From NCBI RefSeq assembly GCF_003585935.1, contig NZ_NRJG01000004.1, forward strand, positions 1 to 36,632: DNA of 36,632 nucleotides. The letters are read 5' to 3'. Positions 36-13,583 of the stretch are shown here, one piece after another. The position numbers were made by a program, and so were the translations under genes. Origin of the DNA: Psittacicella hinzii. Lineage in GTDB: Bacteria; Pseudomonadota; Gammaproteobacteria; Enterobacterales; Psittacicellaceae. Under the pieces are notes generated by a model. That model was not told the DNA's origin. It did no database searches and saw nothing but the letters and a program-made list of their open reading frames with translations. The number at the start of each line of letters is the position of its first letter. Position 1 is the first letter of the stretch.

Positions 36-111
36 AGGGGAGTAGTTCAATTGGCAGAGCATCGGTCTCCAAAACCGAAAGTTGTGAGTTCGACCCTCAC
101 CTCCCCTGCCA
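36..111 (+). tRNA. trpT: tRNA-Trp (anticodon CCA)
   Basis: This is a complete 76-base tRNA cloverleaf. The 7-bp acceptor stem pairs 36-42 with 101-107, the discriminator base is G at 108 and the CCA end is encoded at 109-111. The anticodon stem pairs 62-66 with 74-78 around a loop with anticodon CCA at 69-71, so it reads tryptophan codon UGG. The T arm carries GTTCGA-type loop sequence. It closely resembles the gammaproteobacterial tRNA-Trp as I know it. A rho-independent terminator follows 17 bases downstream, so it is the last or only gene of its transcript. Confidence 0.96.
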
Positions 112-127
112 CTATAAACAAGTTTTC

Positions 128-163
128 AGCTATAGGTGATTCACTTATAGCTTATTTTTTTTT
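128..163 (+). terminator. Intrinsic terminator after tRNA-Trp
   Basis: An 11-bp stem (128-138 with 142-152, one G-T pair) has a three-base loop and is followed by TTATTTTTTTTT. It ends the tRNA-Trp transcript. Confidence 0.85.
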
Positions 164-238
164 GAAACTAAATGTGTTAGTGTTTAGTTTTGATTTCATG
201 GTAATAACTCCTTAAAGTTGATATTGTTGATTGTATTC

Positions 239-263
239 AGAGCTACTTAGGTAGCTCTTTTTT
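239..263 (+). terminator. Second plus-strand terminator hairpin
   Basis: A perfect 8-bp stem (239-246 with 251-258) with a TTAG loop is followed by a run of T. No gene lies between it and the terminator at 128, so it may back up that terminator or be the remnant of a lost gene. Confidence 0.7.
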
Positions 264-333
264 AATATCTGGAATTTGCTAATCTGAAGTGTAGGTTAGA
301 TATTAGTATGATGAAATTATAAAGAAATTGTAA

Positions 334-362
334 AAGGCTTAAGAGGTTTACTCTTAAGCCTT
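334..362. terminator. Hairpin at the 3' end of the MFS gene
   Basis: A perfect 12-bp stem (334-345 with 351-362) has a 5-base loop. Read on the minus strand it lies about 75 bases after the stop of the exporter gene and is followed by TTTT, so it probably terminates that gene. The T run is short. Confidence 0.6.
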
Positions 363-435
363 AAATTGTGTAATTTTTGGTGTATTTTGTAACTTGTATG
401 AGCTAAAACGGAACTTGTATGTGCTAAAGTTTAAT

Positions 436-1944
436 TTATTTACTAGTAATAGTCTGCGCTCTTTTAGCTACATACGGACGAGTAATATAAATATAAATCA
501 AAGTTCCTACAGTACAAATGGTAGCAATTAAACTATCGATATAAATAACACTTGCTCCTTTGTGGTTAGGTAATAGTGCTGTACTAAAGACACAACAGCC
601 AGGTATTACTAAACGCGCAAAAGTTAATAATGAGTTAGCTGTTGCTAACATTTGTGGAAAGATCATTAAGTATAGCGATGTAATATTTGCTAAGAGCATA
701 CCTGTAAAGAAGTAACTAATAGCAAAACACATAATAATGGTGTAAGGACTTAAAAAGAAATAAGTAATTACAATGTTGAATATAATACAGCCACTTTGGC
801 AAAGACTAGCATGTAGCCAAACTTGTCTAGGTTGCCATTGACGACGCATTAGGTATACGTTTAGCCTATTGCCTAAAATAGTTGTAAGCATAGGAATTAA
901 AAAGCATGTACCTACAACTAAGGGAGAGATTTGGTACTGTTTAATTAAGATACTAGGAACTATAACCGGAAAAGAGAAAATACATACCGAATAGCCTGCA
1001 GTAAAAGCAATTAAGCTAATAGCACGAGGATTCTTTAGAATTGTAAAATAGTTATGCCAAGTATTGCTTAAGTTATAGTTAAGTTTGTGTTTTTGAGCAA
1101 GAGTTTCAGGAACTTTCAGTAAATAGATGCTTAAAGCAGCAATTAAACCTATAGTTAAACTGTAAAATATTGCTCTCCAACCAAAAAACGAAGTAATAAT
1201 CCCACCCCAAAATGGACCAAGACCTGGAGCAAACATATAAAACAAAGTTATCCAAGAGTTGTAAATTATAAATTTACGAGGAGGATAAATATCTTTAAGA
1301 ATTACGCTTGCGACCAGTCCTAATCCTGCAAAGGTAAAACCTTGCCACATTCTAAAACAATATACTTGCCAACCTGGTTGCACATGGACAAAAAAGATAT
1401 TAGCAATAATACCTAAGCTAGCACAAACTAAGGTTACAGGTTTGCGTCCCCAGTTATCGAGTAAAGGACCCCAGACAAGTTGTCCGATCCCCATAGCAAA
1501 GATGAAAAAAGCTTGCAAGGCAACAATATTTATTTGTAGTTCATTACTCAGTTGTCCGATTGACGGAGAAAAGGAAGTATTTTCAAGACCTGGAATTACA
1601 GAAAAAGCTACCATCAAACTAATAAGTAACCATTTAGCTGGTAAGTGTTGCTGTAAGTTTTGTTGATGCGGCGTTAGCGCATCGTAATCAGGTTGCTCTT
1701 GTTGCTGATCATTGAAACCACGAGCTTGAGGGATTTCTTGTTCAGGTTGTCTTGTTTCTTGCTCTGGCTTTTTTGTCACTTGCTCGGATTGTCTTGCTTC
1801 TTGTTCAGGCAGTGTTGCTTCTTGTGCGGATTGTACTTTTTGTTGTTCCGATTGTATTGACTCTTGATCCTGTTGCGAGCTTTGATTAGGCTGATTATTA
1901 GTTGCCTGTTGCATATAAATAGAGGTAAATAAACTATGGCTCAT
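436..1944 (-). CDS. Bcr/CflA-type MFS drug exporter with Gln/Glu-rich N-terminal tail
   Basis: A 502-residue inner-membrane transporter of the major facilitator superfamily, DHA1 type, that would export drugs or metabolites in exchange for protons. The membrane part starts near residue 104. MFS motif A is visible as GQLVWGPLLDNWGRKPV between segments 2 and 3, and the drug-antiporter motif C as APGLGPFWGG in segment 5. Both fit the Bcr/CflA family, whose members are near 400 residues. The extra length is a hydrophilic tail of about 100 residues, rich in Q and E, with imperfect repeats of the type PEQE-x-RQ. The start ATG at 1944 has only a weak ribosome site; an in-frame ATG ten codons on has none better. 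The substrate cannot be read from sequence. It is transcribed alone, away from the helicase. Confidence 0.88.
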   Translation of the reverse strand: MSHSLFTSIYMQQATNNQPNQSSQQDQESIQSEQQKVQSAQEATLPEQEARQSEQVTKKPEQETRQPEQEIPQARGFNDQQQEQPDYDALTPHQQNLQQHLPAKWLLISLMVAFSVIPGLENTSFSPSIGQLSNELQINIVALQAFFIFAMGIGQLVWGPLLDNWGRKPVTLVCASLGIIANIFFVHVQPGWQVYCFRMWQGFTFAGLGLVASVILKDIYPPRKFIIYNSWITLFYMFAPGLGPFWGGIITSFFGWRAIFYSLTIGLIAALSIYLLKVPETLAQKHKLNYNLSNTWHNYFTILKNPRAISLIAFTAGYSVCIFSFPVIVPSILIKQYQISPLVVGTCFLIPMLTTILGNRLNVYLMRRQWQPRQVWLHASLCQSGCIIFNIVITYFFLSPYTIIMCFAISYFFTGMLLANITSLYLMIFPQMLATANSLLTFARLVIPGCCVFSTALLPNHKGASVIYIDSLIATICTVGTLIYIYITRPYVAKRAQTITSK

Positions 1945-2828
1945 TAACTTTTGTTAATAAATCTATAGTTATAAGTGGTAAAAGTATTTCAGATTCTCTT
2001 ATAGCAAATAGTCGACTCTGTATTGAGAATATTGTAATTAGTATTAAAGCACTTTCAATATTACAAATATAGGGAGTATGAATACTCTTTGCTAAGAGAT
2101 TAATAGTTGCTATTTTACAAAATCTCTTAGGAAAAAGTTCAAGTCTAACTAATTACGAACCTTAAACCAGTTACTCATTGATTGAGCTCTGTGGTACAGC
2201 TATCACTTTCTCAACTTGTTAGTAGTTAGCTTTAGTTTGATTCAAGATTAATCTCGAATTGATCTAAGGTGAATTAGTTCTTAATAAAAAGTAAGTAACT
2301 AAATGTTTTTAAGGTTAAGAATTTTATTCTAAAACTTATAGTTTGTGCGGTTTTTCTTGCTAGGCGTGGTAAAATAGTAGTACTTTTTTGCTTTGTCAGA
2401 AATTTAAAACTTGTAAGATTAGCGATAAATTATAAGTCACCATAACCCTTAAATTTAGTTCTTTTGCGTGTTATTTTACTCTACTTTAGAGCTTTAAGCT
2501 TGTTAAGCAGTTATCGTACATAGAGATAAGCTAACTTATCAAATATTCTTGAAAAATATGCTTATCAGATAAACTTGTCAAATACGCTTATAGATAAAAG
2601 ATAAAATATCTAAACCTTAATCTTGTGAAGGTTGTTGGTAGGTTTTAGGTGTGTAAATCCAAGCTTTTATGACTTCTAGGTAAGTTTTACTAAATTTAAG
2701 TGCATTTTAATTACTTTTTACTTTTTTGCTTTCTGACAGTAAAGCCGATACATATTAAGATTAAGATAAATAGCTTAGCGGCTTTAAATTACAATTACTT
2801 TTTTGAACTTATTTGCGTGTCGCACTTT
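1945..2828. other. Non-coding gap between MFS gene and helicase
   Basis: About 880 AT-rich bases hold no convincing gene. The gap must contain the divergent promoters of the exporter and the helicase. A long imperfect inverted repeat spans 1994-2099 (outer arms CTCTTATAGCAAA and TTTGCTAAGAG), with a small palindrome GAGTATGAATACTC inside it. I could not assign a promoter with confidence. Confidence 0.5.
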
Positions 2829-5800
2829 ATGACTAATGTGGATAATTTTTCCAATTCAAATGTAGAGGTTTCAGAACCAACTAACGAACGTTCTTTTGGA
2901 CGTTTTGAGTTTAGTTCTTTAGAAACTGTGCGTAATCGTTTAATAAACCTTACGCGTAACAACCGTCTTATAAATTTTCATTCTAGTCGCGCTGTTCTTT
3001 TAGCTGATAAAAGCTTAAATCAAATGGTACAACGTTTTAGTGGTGCCAAAGAATACACAGTACAGTTTTTTCCCCGTTTAACTTATGCGCAATTTCAAGC
3101 TTATTTAGATTGGTTACTTGCAGATAACCAACGTGTGGCTTGTTATCAAGTACAAGTACAAAATGGCAAACTGGTATTAGCTCAAGCTTCAGCTGATAAT
3201 GAACAAAAAACAACGGCTTTTAATGAATCATTAATTGCTAGTCTCAAAGCTCAAGTTGCTGATAAACGTGACCAGAAAGAAAAGACCCACCAAGTAGTAG
3301 CGCAAGTTCTCGCACAACAAGAACAAAGTGATTCTCTTGTTACTCATAATAACTATGCTCTAAGTGAAGTCGATGATGATCTAGAAGACTTTATGCCTTG
3401 GGATTCAATCGAACTCGAAGATGAAGAGCAAGTTTCTCATGCCCTACAAGAGCAAGCACAATTACAAAAACAGTTTGCTGCGAATGAACTTAAGCCTGAA
3501 CAACTAATTCCCCTTTTCTTAACTAATCCGCAAGCTCGTGCGGCTTATTTTGCGAGCAAAGATGATAAAGCTTTAATTTCTGAAACTTTAGAAAAAAGCA
3601 TTAATTTAGCTAGCTATGCTCAATATGCCTTACAGTTAGATAGTGTTACTTTAGGTTTAGAGCAAAGTGCTAATCCAAATGTAAACTTAGCTAAATACGA
3701 TTCACGCGTACAAGTATTAGGCTGGGAACAAAAAGCAGGTAAACAAGTTTACAACTTTTGTCGTAATAACCAAAAATCGATTAAAGAAATCGGGGCTGGG
3801 ATTGTCTTTTTAAGTGTAGGCATGCTGGAGTATATTGATATAGATAATACTTCTTGCTTTGCACCTTTATACTTAATTCCTGTAACTTTAAAAGAACGTA
3901 ATGCGACTAAAGGTAATGCTGTATACAGTATGGTGTATACAGGCGAAGAGATTATCGAAAACGTATCTCTAGCCGAAAAATTACGTACAGATTTTAAAGT
4001 TTACCTCCCTAAAATTAATCGTAAAGAAGATCTGTTACTCGAAAAGAAAAAACTTAAACTGCAAGTGCCTACTTCGTACACCGAACAAAGCATTGCTGAA
4101 GAACTTGCGAGTTTGGAAAATGATGCAAGTTATAGTTTTTTAGAGTATGTACAACGTGTACAGCAAAGTCTTGCAGAACAAAATTATGAATTTGCGCTGC
4201 ATGAACAAGCTTACTTAGCAACCTATCAGTTTGCTAAGCAACGCATGTACTTAGATCTTGATCCTGAAGAATGGCCGGTTCATGCCAGTCTTGATCAGCA
4301 CCCGTTAATCAATGAACTGTTCAATGAGAAAACCGGTGATAAAGAATACGCGGTTGGAGAAATCGATCAAGAATATAACATCGATGAAATCGAGCATATT
4401 CATGATTTATATCCAATTCTAGCTGAAGCCGATTCATCACAGCACTCGGCATTAATTGACGTAGTGCAAGGTAAAAACTTAGTAATCGAAGGTCCGCCTG
4501 GTACTGGTAAATCGCAGACGATTACGAACATGATTGCAGCCTTAATGAAGCAAGGCAAAAAAGTCTTATTCATTGCCGAGAAAATGGCTGCGCAAGAAGG
4601 TGTATTACGTCGTTTACAAGATTTAGGTCTAGGTGACTTCTGTCTTGATTTACATGATACGCATTCGAGTAAAAAAGATGTTTTCACTTCGATTGCTCAA
4701 CGTATTGAAACCTTAAATAAGTTTAATTATCCTGAAAATTTACCTAATGCCATTGCGCAATATGAGTTACATAAAAATACTCTAAATAGCTATGCGCAAG
4801 AAATAAATAAACCGTTTAATCAAACTGGATTTACGCAACAAGAGATTCTTGCGGCTGCCGGTTACTATAAACAGTTTAGTTTTGCTAATGGTGGTTTAGG
4901 TTTATTTGATGAACAAGTTACTAAAGACGAACAAGCAACTACTGCCTTTTTCACTAAAACTAACTATCAAAACATTATTACCGAGTTAGATAGTTTCACC
5001 AACATTATAGCCGGCTTAAAAGAGTCTTTAGTACGTCAATCACGTTACTTAGCTAATACCCAACAGCATACGGACCCAGTAATGGCTCTGCTTGAACGTG
5101 CTGATCAAACGAGCCAATATGACTCTGCAAGTGCAATTAATTTAGGGCAAAATCAAAGCTTTAAATTAGGTGGTAAGGCTTCGAGCACGCAAATGTCACT
5201 AAGTGCGCAAGAGCTTGAGAACTTACGCATTCGTGATCATCTATGGTACGGAATTAGTTCTAAAGAACTAAATAGCTTAAATAGTAGTGACATTACTCAA
5301 GCGCTATTTGTATGGCAAAAAAGTTTAGTAGAAATTAAAAACTTCCTACAAACTTTATTACGTACGCACCAAGTGCCACAAGATGATGTCGTTGGTCCTA
5401 ATGGTGATTTATTAGCGCGTGGTAGTAGCTCGGCTGACCTTGAGTTAGCGCATTTAGACTTATTAGCTCTAGATGTATTTGCGCAAAAATTTGCACAATT
5501 ACCACTAGCAGCCATTAGTGAGTATTTAGATTTTACGTTGCTGCAAGAGTTACTAACTAATCCTTTAGCAAGTGATTCAGCCTTTGCGCAACTGCAAACA
5601 GATCTAGAGCACTTAGAGCGCTATTTAAGTTTTAATGCGGCGCAATCGCAAGGCTTATTTAACTATGCCTACTTAGAATGTGTAGTAATGGCAGCTTCAC
5701 AGCAAGAACAAGAGTTAGATTATAGTAAAGTAACTTCGATTCCAGAATTACGTACTAAACACTATTCGCTGCGTGATCGTCAACAAATTCTAAGCAATCC

Positions 5801-8800
5801 GCACATTGGTAAACTGTTTGCCTATTTAGCTAAACAGGTTAAGCTTTGTAGTCAGTATATTGCTAATCTAGGACAAATTAGCCAATTACAAAAAGTAAAC
5901 AACGCACTCGAAGTTTACTTAAAACGTGATGTGGAAAACCAACGTACGGCTAATGACTTTATGTCGCGTTTAACCGCAAGACTAGCTGGGACGTTAGAGC
6001 TTAATTACTCACAATTAGTAAAACTAGCGCAACTATTAAGTGAATTACCTCCAAATTTAGTGAAATATCGTCACATTAACTATTTAAGTCCGTTAATGGA
6101 GACTAATTTCTCGGAGCTTAAAGAATCACTTAATCAGTTAAACTATGAAATTGCGGCTCTACAAATGGATTATGACCTAGCCCACTTATCTTCATATGAA
6201 GAATTTGTGGCAATGCGTCAAAGTTTAATTAATAAGCCTAATTTCATTATGCGCATGTTTAGTAGTGAGTATAAGAATGCTAAACGTCGCTTGAGTTTAG
6301 TAACTCGCGGCATTAGCTACGACGATATTACAACTGAGCGTATTCTGGCGCGTATTGATTCTTATTATGCTAAATTACGTCAACTGCAACATGCAAGTAC
6401 GTTTAAAGAGTTCTTTGGATCACTATATAACGGTTCAGAGACTAAACTTGAACACATTGACATTCTGCGTCAATGGACAAATAAAGTTGTAGATTTTTGT
6501 CGTAATGAGCTTAATAACTCACAACTAAGTCCAGTAATTGCTTATTTACTAAGCGAAGAAGAGTTCTTTGGCGTAGTTGAAACTGGGCAAATTATTGCCG
6601 ATGACTTTAATCGTCTGCATCAAGCTGCCCAAGAAGTAAACTCGTACTTAAGTTCGTCAATTCTTGATTACAATCAATTAGCCGTAATTGCGCAGCAATT
6701 ACATCCAGCTTGTCAAACCATTCTTAAACTAGTTAATATTGATTTTAATCCGACGGATTTAATTACGCTGTTCCAAGATGGCTTAGCTTTATTCCATGAA
6801 CCACAATATGCCTCAAGCAGTGCTTACACTTATCAGTCACCATATTTACCTGAAAGTGTAATTGAACAATTAGCTTCTTATGACTTAAGTCTAGGTGATT
6901 TACATGGAATTGCTGTAGATCAAGAGGCACAAAGTGAAGTTAAACAACGTCTAACCCAAGAGCGTCCACTTGGTTTTGTGGCTGCAAATACGTGGTATAT
7001 TGCGCAACAGCTTTTAGGCTTATCTCGCTTACTAGGAGACTTAAAAGCTTCGAATATGCAAGCGATTGCTGGTAATCGTCAACAAATGGACGATTTAGAA
7101 ACGCAATTACAAGTAGGTTTAAGCCTCAAGGAAGTATTACGTACTGCGCGTAGTCAACAAAAACAAGCAATCTTAGCGCCGATTGAGTTAAATATTACTT
7201 CGCGCGGTATTCTCAATATGTTTATTGCCTTTAATGGTATTGCCGAGTTTGTGAAAGCGCAAGATAAGATGGCAAGCCTTAGCAATAGCATTAAGAATGC
7301 ACGTCAAGCATTTGCGGCGTTTGTGCAACTAACCGATTTACAAGAAAAGTTATGGATTGGTCAAAGTACTAATAGTTTAATCGACTTAATTGTACGCAAC
7401 CAGTTAGCTTTAGACTGTGCTGATGGTTTAGTTGAATGGTTAGACTACTTAAATGCAACCCAAGATCTTGATCGTCTAGGTATTAGAAAAATTGCTCATT
7501 ATGCCGAGCAAGTGCCTAACTTAGGAGATCATCAACTTGCGGATATGTTCTCGCAAATTTTCTTTAATTTCTTAGCGTGGAAAGTGATTGAAACTTCGCC
7601 AATTTTACGTGATTTTTCATCAATTAACCACAATGCAATTATTGAAAAATTCATTCGCGCGGACGTAGAATTAATGTATGCGCAGCGTCAAAGTACAGCT
7701 CATGCTATTGACATGAATACGCGTCCATTGCCTGGTAATGAAGCGAAACGTCCGGCCGAATTAACGGAAATGGCATTGCTTAATTACATTGCCAAACATC
7801 CAAATTCGCGCGCTTCGATTCGTGACATTATCTTTAGAGCGGGTAATTCGTTACAAGCTTTAAAACCTTGTTTTATGATGTCGCCGGCTTCGGTAGCGCA
7901 ATTCTTAACTCCAGGTTCAATAGCCTTTGACGTCATGATTATGGACGAAGCGTCGCAAGTAACTCCAGAATATGCTTTAGGTGCTATTGCGCGTACCAAA
8001 CAAGTTGTAATTGTAGGTGACCCGAAACAGTTACCACCAACCAACTTCTTCCAACGCAGCAACGAAGAAGCAAGTGCTAATCCAGAAGAGATGTTAGTAA
8101 CTGAAAGTGCTAAATCGATTCTCGATGTAGCTACGACTATGTTCCCGACCCGTGTCCTACGTTGGCACTATCGTTCAAAACATGAGTCGTTAATTGCTTT
8201 CTCGAACCAACAATTCTATGGCAGTAAGCTAGTTGCCTTCCCATCTCCATATGCTCATCATCCTGATTATGGAGTTAAATTTACTCCAGTAGCTGGTAAC
8301 TTTACCAGTAAGTCAGGTAACCTAACCGAGGCTAAAGCCGTAGCACAAGCGATGATTAATCACTTAATCACCCATGAAAGCGAAAGCTTAGGGGCTGTAG
8401 GGATGAACCAACGTCAAGCAAGTTTAATCGAACGTGAGTTCAATAAACTCTTGGCAACCAATCCTCAAGCCCAAGCGGTGTATGAAAAATGGGAAACAAC
8501 AGTTGAGCCGGTATTTGTGAAAAACCTTGAAAACGTACAAGGTGACGAGCGTGATGTTATTATCATTAGTTGTACATATGGTCCAACTAAGGCTACGAAT
8601 AAAATGCTTGAAAACCATGCCCAAGGTTTAGCATACTTAGGTGATAATCTATTGCCACAAAGATTTGGTCCGATAAATATGGCAGGCGGTAGTAAACGTC
8701 TAAACGTTCTATTTACGCGTAGTAAAAAACGGATGGAGATTTACAGCTCGTTTGGTTATGAGGACGTAAAAGATAAAAGCGATACTGTGGATTCAGGAGT

Positions 8801-9218
8801 AAATGATTTACGTATTTTCTTAAAATATGCGCAAACTGGCATTCTTGATAATCCACAAGCTACAGCAGCGCATAAAGTTGATAGCACTCCAAATTACATT
8901 ACTCGCTCGTTAGGTTATGCATTAAGCGACACTTATCAAGTGGAGTCTAATGTTGGAGTTGCAAACTATCATCTAGACTTAGCTTTCCGTTTACCTCAAG
9001 GGGAACGTTACCTCTTAGGTCTAGAAACCGATGGTGTAACTTACGCGGCTGCTAAATCGGCACGTGATCGTGATCGCTTACGTACTTTAGTATTAAAACG
9101 TTTAGGCTGGAACGTAGAACGTCTGTGGACGGTTGACTGGTTTAAATACTCGCAACAAGAAATTACTGATGATGTACGTCATATGCTTTTACGTTTAGCA
9201 CAAAATAATCAACAATAA
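2829..9218 (+). CDS. Giant DUF4011 / SF1 helicase / Vsr-like nuclease protein
   Basis: A 2129-residue cytoplasmic protein that probably unwinds and cuts nucleic acid, most likely against foreign DNA. An N-terminal DUF4011-type segment (about residues 25-50) reads LINLTRNNRLINF. A superfamily-1, Upf1-like helicase follows: Walker A GPPGTGKS 555-562, Walker B DEAS 1706-1709, GDPKQLPP 1730-1737, WHYRS near 1779, VQGDERD 1903-1909 and NVLFTRS near 1959. About 1140 mostly helical residues separate motifs I and II. The C-terminus is a PD-(D/E)XK nuclease of the Vsr/MTES_1575 kind, with D2050, then E2066-T-D2068-G, then RDRDRLR and GWNVERLWTVDWF. All key residues are present. I chose the ATG at 2829; a GTG at 2700 would add 43 hydrophobic residues unlike the family, though neither start has a clear ribosome site. 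Proteins of this architecture recur in defence islands. Confidence 0.88.
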   Translation: MTNVDNFSNSNVEVSEPTNERSFGRFEFSSLETVRNRLINLTRNNRLINFHSSRAVLLADKSLNQMVQRFSGAKEYTVQFFPRLTYAQFQAYLDWLLADNQRVACYQVQVQNGKLVLAQASADNEQKTTAFNESLIASLKAQVADKRDQKEKTHQVVAQVLAQQEQSDSLVTHNNYALSEVDDDLEDFMPWDSIELEDEEQVSHALQEQAQLQKQFAANELKPEQLIPLFLTNPQARAAYFASKDDKALISETLEKSINLASYAQYALQLDSVTLGLEQSANPNVNLAKYDSRVQVLGWEQKAGKQVYNFCRNNQKSIKEIGAGIVFLSVGMLEYIDIDNTSCFAPLYLIPVTLKERNATKGNAVYSMVYTGEEIIENVSLAEKLRTDFKVYLPKINRKEDLLLEKKKLKLQVPTSYTEQSIAEELASLENDASYSFLEYVQRVQQSLAEQNYEFALHEQAYLATYQFAKQRMYLDLDPEEWPVHASLDQHPLINELFNEKTGDKEYAVGEIDQEYNIDEIEHIHDLYPILAEADSSQHSALIDVVQGKNLVIEGPPGTGKSQTITNMIAALMKQGKKVLFIAEKMAAQEGVLRRLQDLGLGDFCLDLHDTHSSKKDVFTSIAQRIETLNKFNYPENLPNAIAQYELHKNTLNSYAQEINKPFNQTGFTQQEILAAAGYYKQFSFANGGLGLFDEQVTKDEQATTAFFTKTNYQNIITELDSFTNIIAGLKESLVRQSRYLANTQQHTDPVMALLERADQTSQYDSASAINLGQNQSFKLGGKASSTQMSLSAQELENLRIRDHLWYGISSKELNSLNSSDITQALFVWQKSLVEIKNFLQTLLRTHQVPQDDVVGPNGDLLARGSSSADLELAHLDLLALDVFAQKFAQLPLAAISEYLDFTLLQELLTNPLASDSAFAQLQTDLEHLERYLSFNAAQSQGLFNYAYLECVVMAASQQEQELDYSKVTSIPELRTKHYSLRDRQQILSNPHIGKLFAYLAKQVKLCSQYIANLGQISQLQKVNNALEVYLKRDVENQRTANDFMSRLTARLAGTLELNYSQLVKLAQLLSELPPNLVKYRHINYLSPLMETNFSELKESLNQLNYEIAALQMDYDLAHLSSYEEFVAMRQSLINKPNFIMRMFSSEYKNAKRRLSLVTRGISYDDITTERILARIDSYYAKLRQLQHASTFKEFFGSLYNGSETKLEHIDILRQWTNKVVDFCRNELNNSQLSPVIAYLLSEEEFFGVVETGQIIADDFNRLHQAAQEVNSYLSSSILDYNQLAVIAQQLHPACQTILKLVNIDFNPTDLITLFQDGLALFHEPQYASSSAYTYQSPYLPESVIEQLASYDLSLGDLHGIAVDQEAQSEVKQRLTQERPLGFVAANTWYIAQQLLGLSRLLGDLKASNMQAIAGNRQQMDDLETQLQVGLSLKEVLRTARSQQKQAILAPIELNITSRGILNMFIAFNGIAEFVKAQDKMASLSNSIKNARQAFAAFVQLTDLQEKLWIGQSTNSLIDLIVRNQLALDCADGLVEWLDYLNATQDLDRLGIRKIAHYAEQVPNLGDHQLADMFSQIFFNFLAWKVIETSPILRDFSSINHNAIIEKFIRADVELMYAQRQSTAHAIDMNTRPLPGNEAKRPAELTEMALLNYIAKHPNSRASIRDIIFRAGNSLQALKPCFMMSPASVAQFLTPGSIAFDVMIMDEASQVTPEYALGAIARTKQVVIVGDPKQLPPTNFFQRSNEEASANPEEMLVTESAKSILDVATTMFPTRVLRWHYRSKHESLIAFSNQQFYGSKLVAFPSPYAHHPDYGVKFTPVAGNFTSKSGNLTEAKAVAQAMINHLITHESESLGAVGMNQRQASLIEREFNKLLATNPQAQAVYEKWETTVEPVFVKNLENVQGDERDVIIISCTYGPTKATNKMLENHAQGLAYLGDNLLPQRFGPINMAGGSKRLNVLFTRSKKRMEIYSSFGYEDVKDKSDTVDSGVNDLRIFLKYAQTGILDNPQATAAHKVDSTPNYITRSLGYALSDTYQVESNVGVANYHLDLAFRLPQGERYLLGLETDGVTYAAAKSARDRDRLRTLVLKRLGWNVERLWTVDWFKYSQQEITDDVRHMLLRLAQNNQQ

Positions 9219-9377: not shown

Positions 9378-9407
9378 TTGTGCCTTAAACCTTAAATTAG
9401 ATATAAT
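9378..9407 (+). promoter_or_regulatory. Predicted promoter of the glycosyltransferase gene
   Basis: A perfect -10 TATAAT lies at 9402-9407 with a weak -35 TTGTGC at 9378-9383, 18 bases apart. The expected start, near 9413, falls inside the left arm of the terminator hairpin that follows, leaving a leader of about 35 bases. Confidence 0.45.
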
Positions 9408-9437
9408 AAAAGCAACCATATCGGTTGCTTTTATTTT
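9408..9437 (+). terminator. Terminator of the helicase gene
   Basis: A perfect 10-bp stem (9408-9417 with 9423-9432) has a 5-base loop and a T-rich tail. It ends only about ten bases before the next start codon, so promoter, terminator and start codon are packed together. Confidence 0.75.
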
Positions 9438-9447
9438 TATATGCCCC

Positions 9448-10530
9448 ATGACAGAAGTTAAATTTTTTAATTTACCGCCTGCTTATAAAGACCTAGCACA
9501 GCAGACGGTGCAACAAATTTTTCCGCATTTTCCGAAAAAACTAGAAATTTATTTTCCGTATAGTAAAGGATTTGCCAGTCTTGGTTTTACGAACCTTAAA
9601 GCGTTTAAAGATTTTTATATCCAAGACATTCCTGAATATAGAGAGCCTTTAAGTAAACGAGATACTTTACGTATTTGTTATTCTCCTGTAAGTGTCGTAA
9701 GCAGCCCCATTAGTTCTGAAGCTGCAGAATACTGCAGTTACCACATGGATATAGCGATTGGTGCAGAGAATGTTGAACGTGTTCCACGAGAAAATTATTT
9801 CCGCTTACCTAGTTGGTGCGTAAGACTATTTGGTTTTTGTCCAACTATTGCACAAATTCAAGAAAAAATTAATCAGCTTGAAGCTAAACGTCAAGCTAAT
9901 CCGTTTTTACGTAATGAGTTTATGGGATGCGTACAAAATAGTAATCGAGCTTACTTTGCTAAAGGTGTTTTAAACTTAATAAACATTTCGTTAATGGCAG
10001 ATGGTGTTTTTAAACATTTGCCGGTATGTTTTGCTGGACGTTTTAATCATAATGATCTACGCCTAACGCAACAATATGCAGGTGATCAAGTAGCATATTT
10101 AGAAAACTTTACTTTCTGCTTATGCCCTGAACGCCTTAACATCCATAGCATTGTTGGACAAGACCTAGCTATTGCTTGGGAAGCTGGTTGTATCCCACTT
10201 TATTGGGGAGATCTAGGTTTAGATCAAGAGTTTATTAACCGTAAGGCTTTAATTGAATTTAGTACGGTAGAACGTCAGCAACATCTTAAAGCCCTATACC
10301 ATGCTCTTGCCGAGCCTGAAGCTATACTGTCGCAACCTATTTTCAACGAAAATGCTGCACAACTAATTTATCAACGTATATATGCTCCGATCTATGCATA
10401 TCTAAGCAAGATCTTACAAGTTGATATTTTAGATTATAGCGATTTAGGTGATCCTGCACGAGCGGCGCAGCAATTTAGCCACGATGAGGCTAAACCTGAA
10501 AATTGGTTTATCTTTACCCACAATACTTAA
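9448..10530 (+). CDS. GT10-like (alpha-1,3-fucosyltransferase-like) glycosyltransferase
   Basis: A 360-residue soluble protein that matches the layout of CAZy family GT10, whose bacterial members add fucose to surface glycans such as LPS O-chains. The N-terminal half has the family pattern of a strand followed by R..YFRLPSW (114-123). The middle shows F-x-G-C-V-Q-N-S-N-R (158-167), like the FxxSN..R segment. The C-terminal half has FTFCLCPER (221-229) and AWEAGCIPLYWGD (243-255), matching the Y/F-x-F-x-L-x-F-E-N and A-G-x-V-P-V-x-Y-G blocks. Two expected features are altered: the FENS block reads CPER, and the TEK of the donor-binding motif reads GQD (237-239). Donor or acceptor may therefore differ from fucose and LacNAc. 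It is a single gene, with no sugar-nucleotide genes nearby and no ribosome site apart from the T-rich terminator tail. Confidence 0.7.
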   Translation: MTEVKFFNLPPAYKDLAQQTVQQIFPHFPKKLEIYFPYSKGFASLGFTNLKAFKDFYIQDIPEYREPLSKRDTLRICYSPVSVVSSPISSEAAEYCSYHMDIAIGAENVERVPRENYFRLPSWCVRLFGFCPTIAQIQEKINQLEAKRQANPFLRNEFMGCVQNSNRAYFAKGVLNLINISLMADGVFKHLPVCFAGRFNHNDLRLTQQYAGDQVAYLENFTFCLCPERLNIHSIVGQDLAIAWEAGCIPLYWGDLGLDQEFINRKALIEFSTVERQQHLKALYHALAEPEAILSQPIFNENAAQLIYQRIYAPIYAYLSKILQVDILDYSDLGDPARAAQQFSHDEAKPENWFIFTHNT

Positions 10531-10632: not shown

Positions 10633-12418
10633 CCTAAATTCCTAAAATAAAATCGAGTTTACAATAAGAAAATCTATGGCATACCTTGATCGCTTAGCTA
10701 AGTTACCATCATGTAATATTACCTATCTGAAATACAAAGATAAGTATTACTATGTAATTTATAACTATGACTATAAACGAAATAGTAAAGGCATTCCTCA
10801 ATCTAAGAAATTAACTATAGGCAAAATTGCGAATCCTAAAGATGAATATTTTCATCCTAATGAGAACTATGTAAAAGTCTATGGCGATAAGGTTGAGTTT
10901 GTTAATGCCAAGCCTGCATTTAATGAACCTAAAGCAGATATAGAAAAGGAATATGATCTACGAAACCAGCCGATTAAAAGCATTGAATATACTCAGCCGG
11001 TAGGATTACATCTTGCTGTAGAACATCTAGCAATGACTGCAAATCTTTATAAGATTTTACGTAAAGTATTTAACAACTCAGCGCCACTTATTTTCTCATT
11101 AGCGACTTATATCCTAAGCAAAGGTAATGCAATATCTGGTTATGAAAAGTGGGCGCAAAAGCACTACCTTGCTCCAGAGTTAATTATTGATAAGAGAAGA
11201 ATTTTAGATTTCTTTGTTTGGGATATTAAGGAAGAGAAAATCCATGAGTTTCTAGAGCTATGGCAAAAAAGTACGCATGATGAGGAATTTGTAGCATACA
11301 ATGCAACCTCAAGATTAACCCTTAGTCAGATGATAGGAACTGAGCGTAGCTATAACGAGGAGAACGACTTTACGAAACAAATAAATGTCGGAGTTGTTTA
11401 TGGCTACAACTCAAAATTAACTTTGCACTACTCATGGAATTAAGAAATAGTTGATTATGAGACAGACTCTTTTTTCATGTTAAAGTTAACTTCAGCTTTT
11501 AATGAGAGAAGAACTAAATTTGTTATTAATCAAGATAACTACTCTGAAGGTAATCTTAAAACTTTCGACGATCATAACCATAGTTTTATAAGCTTCATTC
11601 CAAGTGCAACTTCTTTAGGCAAATCATCTATTGATCAAGCTATTGAAATTAAATTAGGTTATGAGCACTGTTTACCTGGAATTCCTGAAGTAAAAGCTAT
11701 GGTTAAAGAAGCAGTAATCAATGGGGTTAAATGTAAAGTACATACCTATTTTGATGAGATGCAAAGAGTAGAAGCTTTGCTTAGTTTTGACTCAGAGATT
11801 AAATTTTATGAAGCAGAGATAAAGAGTCGCATTACAGCAAAACAGCAAGTAAAATCAAACAAATACTTCACCGTGCATTGTTTATCAGGTGATAAGCAGC
11901 AATATACGTATGAAAGAAACCTAGAAGCAATCAAAAAAGAATATGCAAAATTAGGATATTTCTGTTTAGTTACTAACGAACTAGATTTAACTTCATTAGA
12001 AGTTCTTAATCTTTATCACAGTAAAGAGATGGTTGATAAATCTTTTAAAGATGTAAGTCATATACTGCAAAGAAGAATTAAACCCGAGGATATAGACACT
12101 GCAAACGGTAGAATGTTCGTTTTCTTTATCTCTTTAATTCTACTTAGCATGTTGCAAAATAAAATTGCTCAAAGTGGCAGTAAGATTAAAGTAGCAATCG
12201 AAGAAATCATTGCAGAATTAGACGATATCAAATACTTTGTAACGCACAATGAAAAAATTCTGCACCCTCTTACAACTTTACAGAAATCTCTTATCGAAGC
12301 TTTAGGTTTGAATTTAGATTTGAGTCTAGATTTAAATTTAGATTTTGTTTAGACATTGCATAAAGATCTCATGCTGTCTAATAGTTGGTGAACTAAATTT
12401 ATATTTTAGGAATTTAGG
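10633..12418 (+). mobile_element. Degenerate IS1634-like insertion sequence with 17-bp inverted ends
   Basis: A 1786-bp element bounded by perfect 17-bp inverted repeats: CCTAAATTCCTAAAATA at 10633-10649 and its exact complement at 12402-12418. The left end lies 26 bases before the transposase start and the right end about 50 bases after its last stop, which is where IS ends should be. I saw no clear target-site duplication. The repeats are AT-rich, so a chance match is possible but unlikely at these two places. The transposase within is inactive by several criteria. Confidence 0.72.
10676..12352 (+). pseudogene. Broken IS1634/IS4-type transposase
   Basis: Two open segments, 10676-11443 (255 codons) and 11477-12352 (291 codons), lie in the same frame and are split by one TAA at 11441-11443. 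The codons between the TAA and 11477 read on sensibly, so this is one old gene with an in-frame stop. The stop falls where the family has N-G-S/T-I (here N-stop-E-I-V-D). The catalytic residues are also lost. The first Asp in the YDxTS motif is Asn (YNATS, residue 209). The second, in VxDRGFYS, is Asn (VINQDNYS). The Glu of the Y-2-R-3-E signature is Asp (Y180-K183-D187 of the second half). The N-terminal domain (residues 10-65) is an intact small binding domain with the motif SKKLTIGKI. An inactive transposase is far more likely than a domesticated one. Confidence 0.85.
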
Positions 12419-12491: not shown

Positions 12492-13583
12492 TTATACGTT
12501 AAATCTAAAGTGCATTACATCACCGTCTTGCACAATATATTCTTTACCTTCTAAACGTAGTTTACCTTTTTCTTTTGCACCTTGCTCACCATTACATGCT
12601 ACGAAATCATCATAAGCAGTAACTTCAGCACGGATAAAGCCACGTTCGAAATCAGTGTGAATTACACCTGCAGCTTGTGGAGCTGTAGCACCTACTGGAA
12701 TAGTCCAAGCACGTACTTCTTTAACTCCAGCTGTGAAGTAAGTTTGCAATTGTAATAGTTTATAACCAGCACGAATTACACGATCTAGACCAGATTCTTC
12801 TAAACCTAAATCAGCTAAGAATGCTGCTTTTTCTTCTTCGTCTAATTGTGCGATTTCAGCTTCAATAGCAGCACAAATAGGTACAACAACTGAGCCTTCT
12901 TTAGCAGCTAAAGCTTCTACTTTTTCTAAGTAAGGGTTATCTGTAAAACCAGATTCATTTACATTCGCAATGTACATCACAGGTTTTAAAGTTAAGAAGC
13001 TGTAACTTTTAATAAGTTTTTTCTCATCTTCACTTAAACCGATTGCACGTAAAGAAGTACCTTCAGCTAGAGCTGCAGCACATTTATCGATAACTTCTAA
13101 TTCTGCTTTAGCATCTTTATCGTTACCTTTAGCACGTTTAATTAGACGTTGTTGTGCACGTTCACAAACTTCTAAGTCTGCTAATACTAATTCAGTGTTA
13201 ATAGTTTCAATATCATCTAGAGGATCGATACGACCATTAACGTGAATAATATCATCATTTTCAAAGCAACGTACTACGTGACCGATAGCTTCTGTTTCAC
13301 GGATGTTAGCTAAGAATTTATTACCTAAACCTTCACCTTTTGAAGCACCGGCAACTAGACCAGCAATATCCACGAACTCCATAGTAGTTGGAATTACACG
13401 TTCAGTTTTTACAATATCTTGTAAAACATATAAACGTGGATCTGGCATAGGAACGATACCAGTGTTAGGTTCGATTGTACAGAATGGATAGTTTTCGGCT
13501 TGAATGCCTGCTTTTGTTAGAGCATTGAAGAGGGTTGATTTACCAACGTTTGGTAGACCAACAATACCACATCTAAAACCCAT
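12492..13583 (-). CDS. ychF: Redox-regulated ATPase YchF (Obg-family)
   Basis: A 363-residue P-loop NTPase of the Obg family that binds ribosomes and prefers ATP over GTP. The P-loop GLPNVGKST lies at residues 8-16. The G3 region DIAGLV follows, and the specificity motif reads NVNE in place of the usual NKxD, the family's mark of ATP preference. A coiled-coil region sits in the middle and a TGS domain at the C-terminus ends HFRFNV. Length matches E. coli (363). The start ATG has AAGGAT about ten bases upstream. It lies 273 bases downstream of pth on the same strand, the order seen in Enterobacteria and Pasteurellaceae. Confidence 0.97.

What the first reader, a model, noticed from the sequence alone, without database searches (positions are those of the whole stretch)
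2829..9218. Giant helicase-nuclease protein with a defence-island architecture beside a tRNA
Seen: DUF4011-like start, all main SF1 helicase motifs, and a C-terminal PD-(D/E)XK nuclease of the Vsr/MTES_1575 kind with its acidic residues intact, in one 2129-residue chain. Known: DUF4011-helicase-Vsr proteins recur in phage-defence islands. Inferred: this is a single-gene or core defence factor carried in the accessory block next to tRNA-Trp. No methylase or partner gene is nearby, so it would act alone or with distant partners.
Basis: partly seen in the sequence, partly recalled or inferred. Interest (0 to 1): 0.62.

Follow-up and report, generated by a model that had tools for sequence, protein, structure and literature searches.

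The report
Lone core Hhe-like helicase, degraded nuclease
The giant protein is real and related to known anti-phage helicase-nucleases, but in this bird-associated genus it is a permanent, lone chromosomal gene among housekeeping genes whose cutting domain has lost key residues, so it looks like a defence protein that was kept and altered rather than a mobile defence-island gene.

Summary
The ORF, the DUF4011 domain, the SF1 helicase motifs and the Vsr-like MTES_1575 domain are confirmed at 2829-9218. The protein belongs to the Hhe/ProA/PDC-S37 superfamily of anti-phage helicase-nucleases. It scores below both NCBIfam equivalog cut-offs and forms its own clade beside Hhe. The 'accessory block / defence island' reading fails. 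All four held genomes of the genus (Psittacicella) carry a 60-62% identical orthologue in the same place, between tRNA-Trp and ychF-pth-dsbB-pyrG-eno, with signs of purifying selection and no defence gene nearby. Relatives elsewhere in the order are patchy, and some lie beside R-M, HEC-06, SIR2-HerA or Septu genes. 'Acidic residues intact' is only partly right. Asp2050, Glu2066 and Asp2068 are present, but the active-site His (69 of 77 relatives) is Ala/Thr and the helix-1 Glu (71 of 77) is Ile in all four species. Helicase motifs are untouched and the nuclease fold is still predicted. Best reading: a vertically inherited, defence-derived SF1 translocase whose Vsr-fold domain probably binds nucleic acid without efficient cutting. 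Whether it still acts against phage is untested. The 360-aa neighbour is a GT10 fucosyltransferase-like gene behind a terminator, an unlikely partner. New variant of a known kind.

The parts
2829..9218 (+). Hhe-like DUF4011 / SF1 helicase / Vsr-like protein, 2129 aa
2937..3983 (+). DUF4011 domain (aa 37-385); signature LLDLTxRN altered (D40N, R44N) as in all four species
4491..4514 (+). Walker A GPPGTGKS (aa 555-562)
7944..8039 (+). Helicase motifs II (DEAS 1706-1709) and III (GDPKQLPP 1730-1737)
8931..9167 (+). MTES_1575 Vsr-like nuclease domain (aa 2035-2113); E2066 and D2068 kept, active-site His replaced by A2073; helix-1 Glu just upstream replaced by I2024
9405..9435 (+). Intrinsic-terminator-like hairpin directly after the gene; equivalent hairpin in L012 9162-9193
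9448..10530 (+). GT10 alpha-1,3-fucosyltransferase-like gene; conserved downstream neighbour in the genus, not a likely partner
36..111 (+). tRNA-Trp, conserved upstream landmark (three of four species; contig of the fourth starts too late to show it)
12492..13583 (-). ychF, conserved downstream landmark

Best explanation
A divergent Hhe-superfamily protein (DUF4011 + SF1 helicase split by a long insert + Vsr-fold domain) that was present in the ancestor of Psittacicella and is fixed in its core genome. It is made from its own transcription unit and most likely works alone. The intact SF1 motor hydrolyses ATP to load on and move along DNA (or RNA). The DUF4011 N-terminus and the C-terminal Vsr fold contact nucleic acid. 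Because the conserved His and helix-1 Glu are gone, the Vsr fold probably binds or gates rather than cuts, or cuts only weakly. The likely output is motor-driven displacement or sensing of foreign or aberrant nucleic acid, that is, a fixed, altered intrinsic defence factor. Shown by tool results: domains, vertical descent, fixed locus, residue losses and predicted fold. Inferred: motor activity, loss of cleavage and biological role.
For: Domains and superfamily. Own clade, 100% support, sister to a clade containing Klebsiella Hhe. Four of four held genomes at the same locus. Branching pattern as in pth and dsbB, and pN/pS 0.25-0.40 with saturated dS (neighbouring genes 0.04-0.61). Helicase motifs intact. 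Near-invariant family positions changed in all four species: helicase 6/121, nuclease 9/31 (Fisher p 4e-4), DUF4011 7/20. Active-site His kept in 69/77 relatives and 0/4 here; helix-1 Glu 71/77 and 0/4. Fold predicted at pLDDT about 90 across most of the domain, matching I-Bth0305I (Z 11.1), the RAP domain of FASTKD4 (10.4), 3hrl (10.0) and Vsr (9.8). Terminator after the gene in two species. No defence neighbours.
Against: Asp2050, Glu2066 and Asp2068 remain and the nuclease region still shows purifying selection (pN/pS about 0.25-0.46), so some cutting is possible; Lys2076 could stand in for the lost His. Only four genomes of the genus are held, and four related sequences are not four independent losses. 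No activity data exist for this protein. Nothing shown here excludes a non-defence role.
Confidence: 0.5

Rival explanations
1. An ordinary, fully active Hhe-type single-gene defence helicase-nuclease that merely became fixed in this genus; the missing His and Glu are tolerated or compensated (for example by Lys2076).
For: Superfamily membership; metal-binding acidic residues kept; a DUF4011 gene is reported as a core gene flanking a defence hotspot in every P. aeruginosa isolate (PMC10250203), so core position alone does not exclude defence.
Against: His and helix-1 Glu are replaced in 4/4 species while 69/77 and 71/77 relatives keep them; changes are concentrated in the nuclease and DUF4011 parts.
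Confidence: 0.25
2. A domesticated housekeeping DNA/RNA maintenance helicase of Psittacicella (repair, R-loop or RNA role) with no remaining anti-phage function; the Vsr fold has become a RAP-like nucleic-acid-binding domain.
For: Same housekeeping locus in all four held genomes, degraded active site with retained fold, structural match to RAP domains.
Against: Superfamily otherwise patchy and in part defence-associated; the gene diverges faster than core information-processing neighbours (60-62% versus 93-94% for ychF).
Confidence: 0.2
3. A horizontally acquired member of a tRNA-anchored accessory or defence island.
For: tRNA-Trp 2.7 kb upstream; IS1634 remnant downstream; close relatives beside R-M genes.
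Against: Identical locus in four species, no second tRNA 3' end in the window, no defence genes among the neighbours, base composition like its neighbours.
Confidence: 0.05

Closest known systems
Hhe (NCBIfam NF042953 / PADLOC Hhe), e.g. Klebsiella plasmid protein WP_319793446
   Same: Same domain order, all helicase motifs, Vsr-like C-terminus; nearest clade in the tree.
   Different: 1212 bits against a cut-off of 2000, whereas true Hhe scored 2394-2739. Middle region 16% identical. Nuclease His and helix-1 Glu lost. Chromosomally fixed rather than plasmid- or island-borne.
ProA (NCBIfam NF058533) and PDC-S37 (PADLOC)
   Same: Same superfamily and architecture; PDC-S37 is the top PADLOC hit (941 bits).
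   Different: 858 bits against a cut-off of 1500 for ProA; L049, which passes the ProA cut-off, lies outside the Hhe + Psittacicella clade.
P. aeruginosa core DUF4011 gene flanking cDHS1 (PMC10250203)
   Same: A DUF4011 gene fixed in a species' core genome.
   Different: It borders a defence hotspot; here there is none. Its sequence and nuclease residues were not compared.
Vsr / I-Bth0305I / DUF559 nucleases and RAP domains
   Same: C-terminal fold.
   Different: His and helix-1 Glu of the family are missing here, as expected of a binding-only domain; that RAP domains are catalytically degenerate is my own knowledge, not tested.

Membership tests
Hhe (NF042953 equivalog) | Score at or above curated cut-off (2000 bits) | tested here: not met
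   1211.7 bits; reference Hhe proteins 2394-2739
Hhe | DUF4011 + SF1 helicase + MTES_1575 in one chain | tested here: met
Hhe | Intact Vsr-like nuclease site (helix-1 Glu, Asp, Glu, His) | tested here: not met
   Asp and Glu present, helix-1 Glu and His absent
Hhe | Phylogenetic placement inside the Hhe clade | tested here: not met
   Separate sister clade, stem length 1.47; the Hhe side has 97% SH-aLRT
Hhe | Anti-phage activity | not testable with these tools
   needs plaque assays
ProA (NF058533 equivalog) | Score at or above curated cut-off (1500 bits) | tested here: not met
   857.8 bits
SF1 helicase | Walker A, DExx, GDPKQLPP and motifs IV-VI present | tested here: met
SF1 helicase | ATPase or translocase activity | not testable with these tools
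   needs biochemistry
Vsr/PD-(D/E)XK fold | Fold match | tested here: met
   pLDDT about 90 across most of the domain; 1vsr Z 9.8, rmsd 2.7 over 98 residues; I-Bth0305I Z 11.1
Defence island | Other defence genes nearby | tested here: not met
   0 of 28 neighbouring proteins with a PADLOC hit at E 1e-10
tRNA-anchored genomic island | Variable presence between relatives and an att-like repeat of the tRNA 3' end | tested here: not met
   4/4 species at the same locus; no att-like copy in the window

The most novel reading that the evidence does not exclude
A phage-defence helicase-nuclease was domesticated in the ancestor of Psittacicella: fixed in the core genome, cutting lost, motor kept, with the Vsr fold converted into a RAP-like nucleic-acid-binding module serving genome or RNA maintenance. 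The recurrence of similar active-site losses in other DUF4011 helicases (L034, L039/L040, L066, L069, L095/L096, L120) would make this a repeated evolutionary route.
Probability: 0.25. Interest if true: 0.65.

Novelty: new variant of a known kind. Interest (0 to 1): 0.42.

Why it matters
Defence-finding pipelines call DUF4011-helicase-Vsr genes as anti-phage systems from domain content. This case shows a fixed, genus-wide, probably nuclease-impaired form outside any defence island, and about 10% (8 of 77) of the other sampled nuclease domains in the superfamily have lost the active-site His. Annotation by domain alone may therefore overstate active defence, and nuclease-dead DUF4011 helicases make the role of the motor itself testable.

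Tried and rejected
The 360-aa downstream ORF was considered as a conserved partner. It has no Pfam hit to a related family even at E 10; a profile search links it to H. pylori alpha-1,3-fucosyltransferase (E 0.0024). It is separated by a terminator and has paralogues elsewhere in three of the four Psittacicella genomes, so it is rejected as a functional partner. Its structure prediction failed (pLDDT 35). Island integration at tRNA-Trp was rejected (and gene order). The phage collection held only two weak matches. Literature on how Hhe works was not found in the open library. Counts of defence neighbours around relatives come from pooled family tallies (142 proteins from 20 loci; a few rows are fragments of the homologue itself) and lack a matched random control outside this locus.

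Full report
WHAT WAS CHECKED. The open reading frame at 2829-9218 (+) encodes 2129 residues without interruption. Pfam places DUF4011 at 37-385, SF1 helicase domains AAA_11 and AAA_12, and the Vsr-like MTES_1575 domain at 2035-2113, all above curated cut-offs. An alignment with 21 homologues shows Walker A, motif II, motif III and motifs IV to VI intact.

WHAT FAMILY. PADLOC's best models are PDC-S37 (941 bits) and Hhe (789 bits). NCBIfam's Hhe model scores 1212 bits and ProA 858, both below their equivalog cut-offs of 2000 and 1500. Reference Hhe proteins score 2394 to 2739 bits and a ProA-type protein 1548. A maximum-likelihood tree puts the window's protein and its three orthologues in one clade (100%), on a long stem (1.47 changes per column), beside a clade that contains the annotated Klebsiella plasmid Hhe; ProA-type and other members lie outside. 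It is a member of the superfamily, not of Hhe or ProA as curated.

WHERE IT SITS. The genus is Psittacicella: the P. gerlachiana contig L002 has the same length and match coordinates as one of the three orthologue-bearing genomes. All four genomes held for the family carry an orthologue at 60-62% identity. In each, the same genes follow in the same order: the large gene, a roughly 360-aa gene, ychF, pth, dsbB, then pyrG where the contig reaches. tRNA-Trp lies upstream wherever the contig reaches it. Further along the window are enolase and an M17 aminopeptidase. Identities, pN/pS and branching order fall within the range of the neighbouring genes, and base composition is ordinary. This is vertical inheritance at a fixed housekeeping locus. 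None of 28 proteins around the gene in these genomes hits a defence model at 1e-10. By contrast, neighbours of homologues in other families of the order include type I R-M, type II methylase and HEC-06 and SIR2-HerA and Septu, and the family is patchy there. The tRNA 3' end has no second copy in the window. The accessory-island reading is therefore not supported inside this genus.

THE NUCLEASE. In the alignment, E2066 and D2068 are conserved throughout the genus and D2050 in three of four species (Glu in the fourth). But the His that follows in the family motif ECDGxxYH is Ala, Ala, Ala, Thr in the four species, and the Glu of the first helix (DSxFE) is Ile in all four. In a wider survey of 81 distinct nuclease domains, 69 of 77 others keep the His and 71 of 77 keep the Glu. 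Of family positions that are near-invariant in 18 full-length relatives, all four Psittacicella proteins changed 9 of 31 in the nuclease and 7 of 20 in the DUF4011 part, but only 6 of 121 in the helicase (the four sequences share ancestry, so the p-values are descriptive). The fold itself is predicted confidently and matches I-Bth0305I, RAP domains, a DUF559-like protein and Vsr. The nuclease region still shows purifying selection within the genus. The straightforward reading is a retained nucleic-acid-binding fold with impaired or lost cutting. Residual activity cannot be excluded, because the acidic residues remain and Lys2076 could substitute. That the His and helix-1 Glu are catalytic is inferred from their conservation and from the Vsr family, not tested.

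LONE GENE. A strong terminator-like hairpin follows the gene in the window (9405-9435) and at the equivalent place in a second species. The conserved next gene is a GT10 fucosyltransferase-like protein with paralogues elsewhere in three of the four genomes, so an operon partner is unlikely.

MECHANISM. The best-supported mechanism is an ATP-driven SF1 translocase of defence origin that is fixed in the genus and acts by motor-driven binding, displacement or sensing of foreign or aberrant nucleic acid, with the Vsr fold as a binding or gating module. The motor activity, its substrate and the anti-phage role are inference. A fully active fixed Hhe-type nuclease and a domesticated maintenance helicase are the main rivals. 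A DUF4011 gene being core in P. aeruginosa beside a defence hotspot (PMC10250203) shows that core position alone does not exclude defence. Giant SF1 helicase-Vsr proteins were earlier proposed to act without a modification partner (PMC3710099).

RECURRENCE. Eight other nuclease domains in the survey also lack the His, some also the catalytic Glu (L034, L039/L040, L066, L069, L095/L096, L120). Loss of cutting may be a repeated path in DUF4011 helicases; how many independent losses these represent was not tested on a tree.

Noticed in passing
window 9448-10530: GT10 alpha-1,3-fucosyltransferase-like gene, missed by Pfam; conserved neighbour in all four Psittacicella genomes, with paralogues elsewhere in three of them; otherwise nearly absent from 99 genomes of the order.
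   Followed up: partly
window 10676-12352: IS1634-family transposase split into two ORFs, between the GT10 gene and ychF; no other full copy in the genome and absent from this locus in the other three species.
   Followed up: partly
L034, L039, L040, L066, L069, L095, L096, L120: Other DUF4011-helicase proteins with lost nuclease His, several also lacking the catalytic Glu: recurrent nuclease degeneration in the superfamily.
   Followed up: partly
window 112-2828: Segment between tRNA-Trp and the helicase gene differs between species: an MFS efflux gene in three of four, extra small ORFs in two, nothing in L014; no defence hits.
   Followed up: partly
L043 6911-12581, L053 7527-12329: Two homologues in other families are broken (stop codons or split frames), consistent with turnover of this gene elsewhere.
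   Followed up: no
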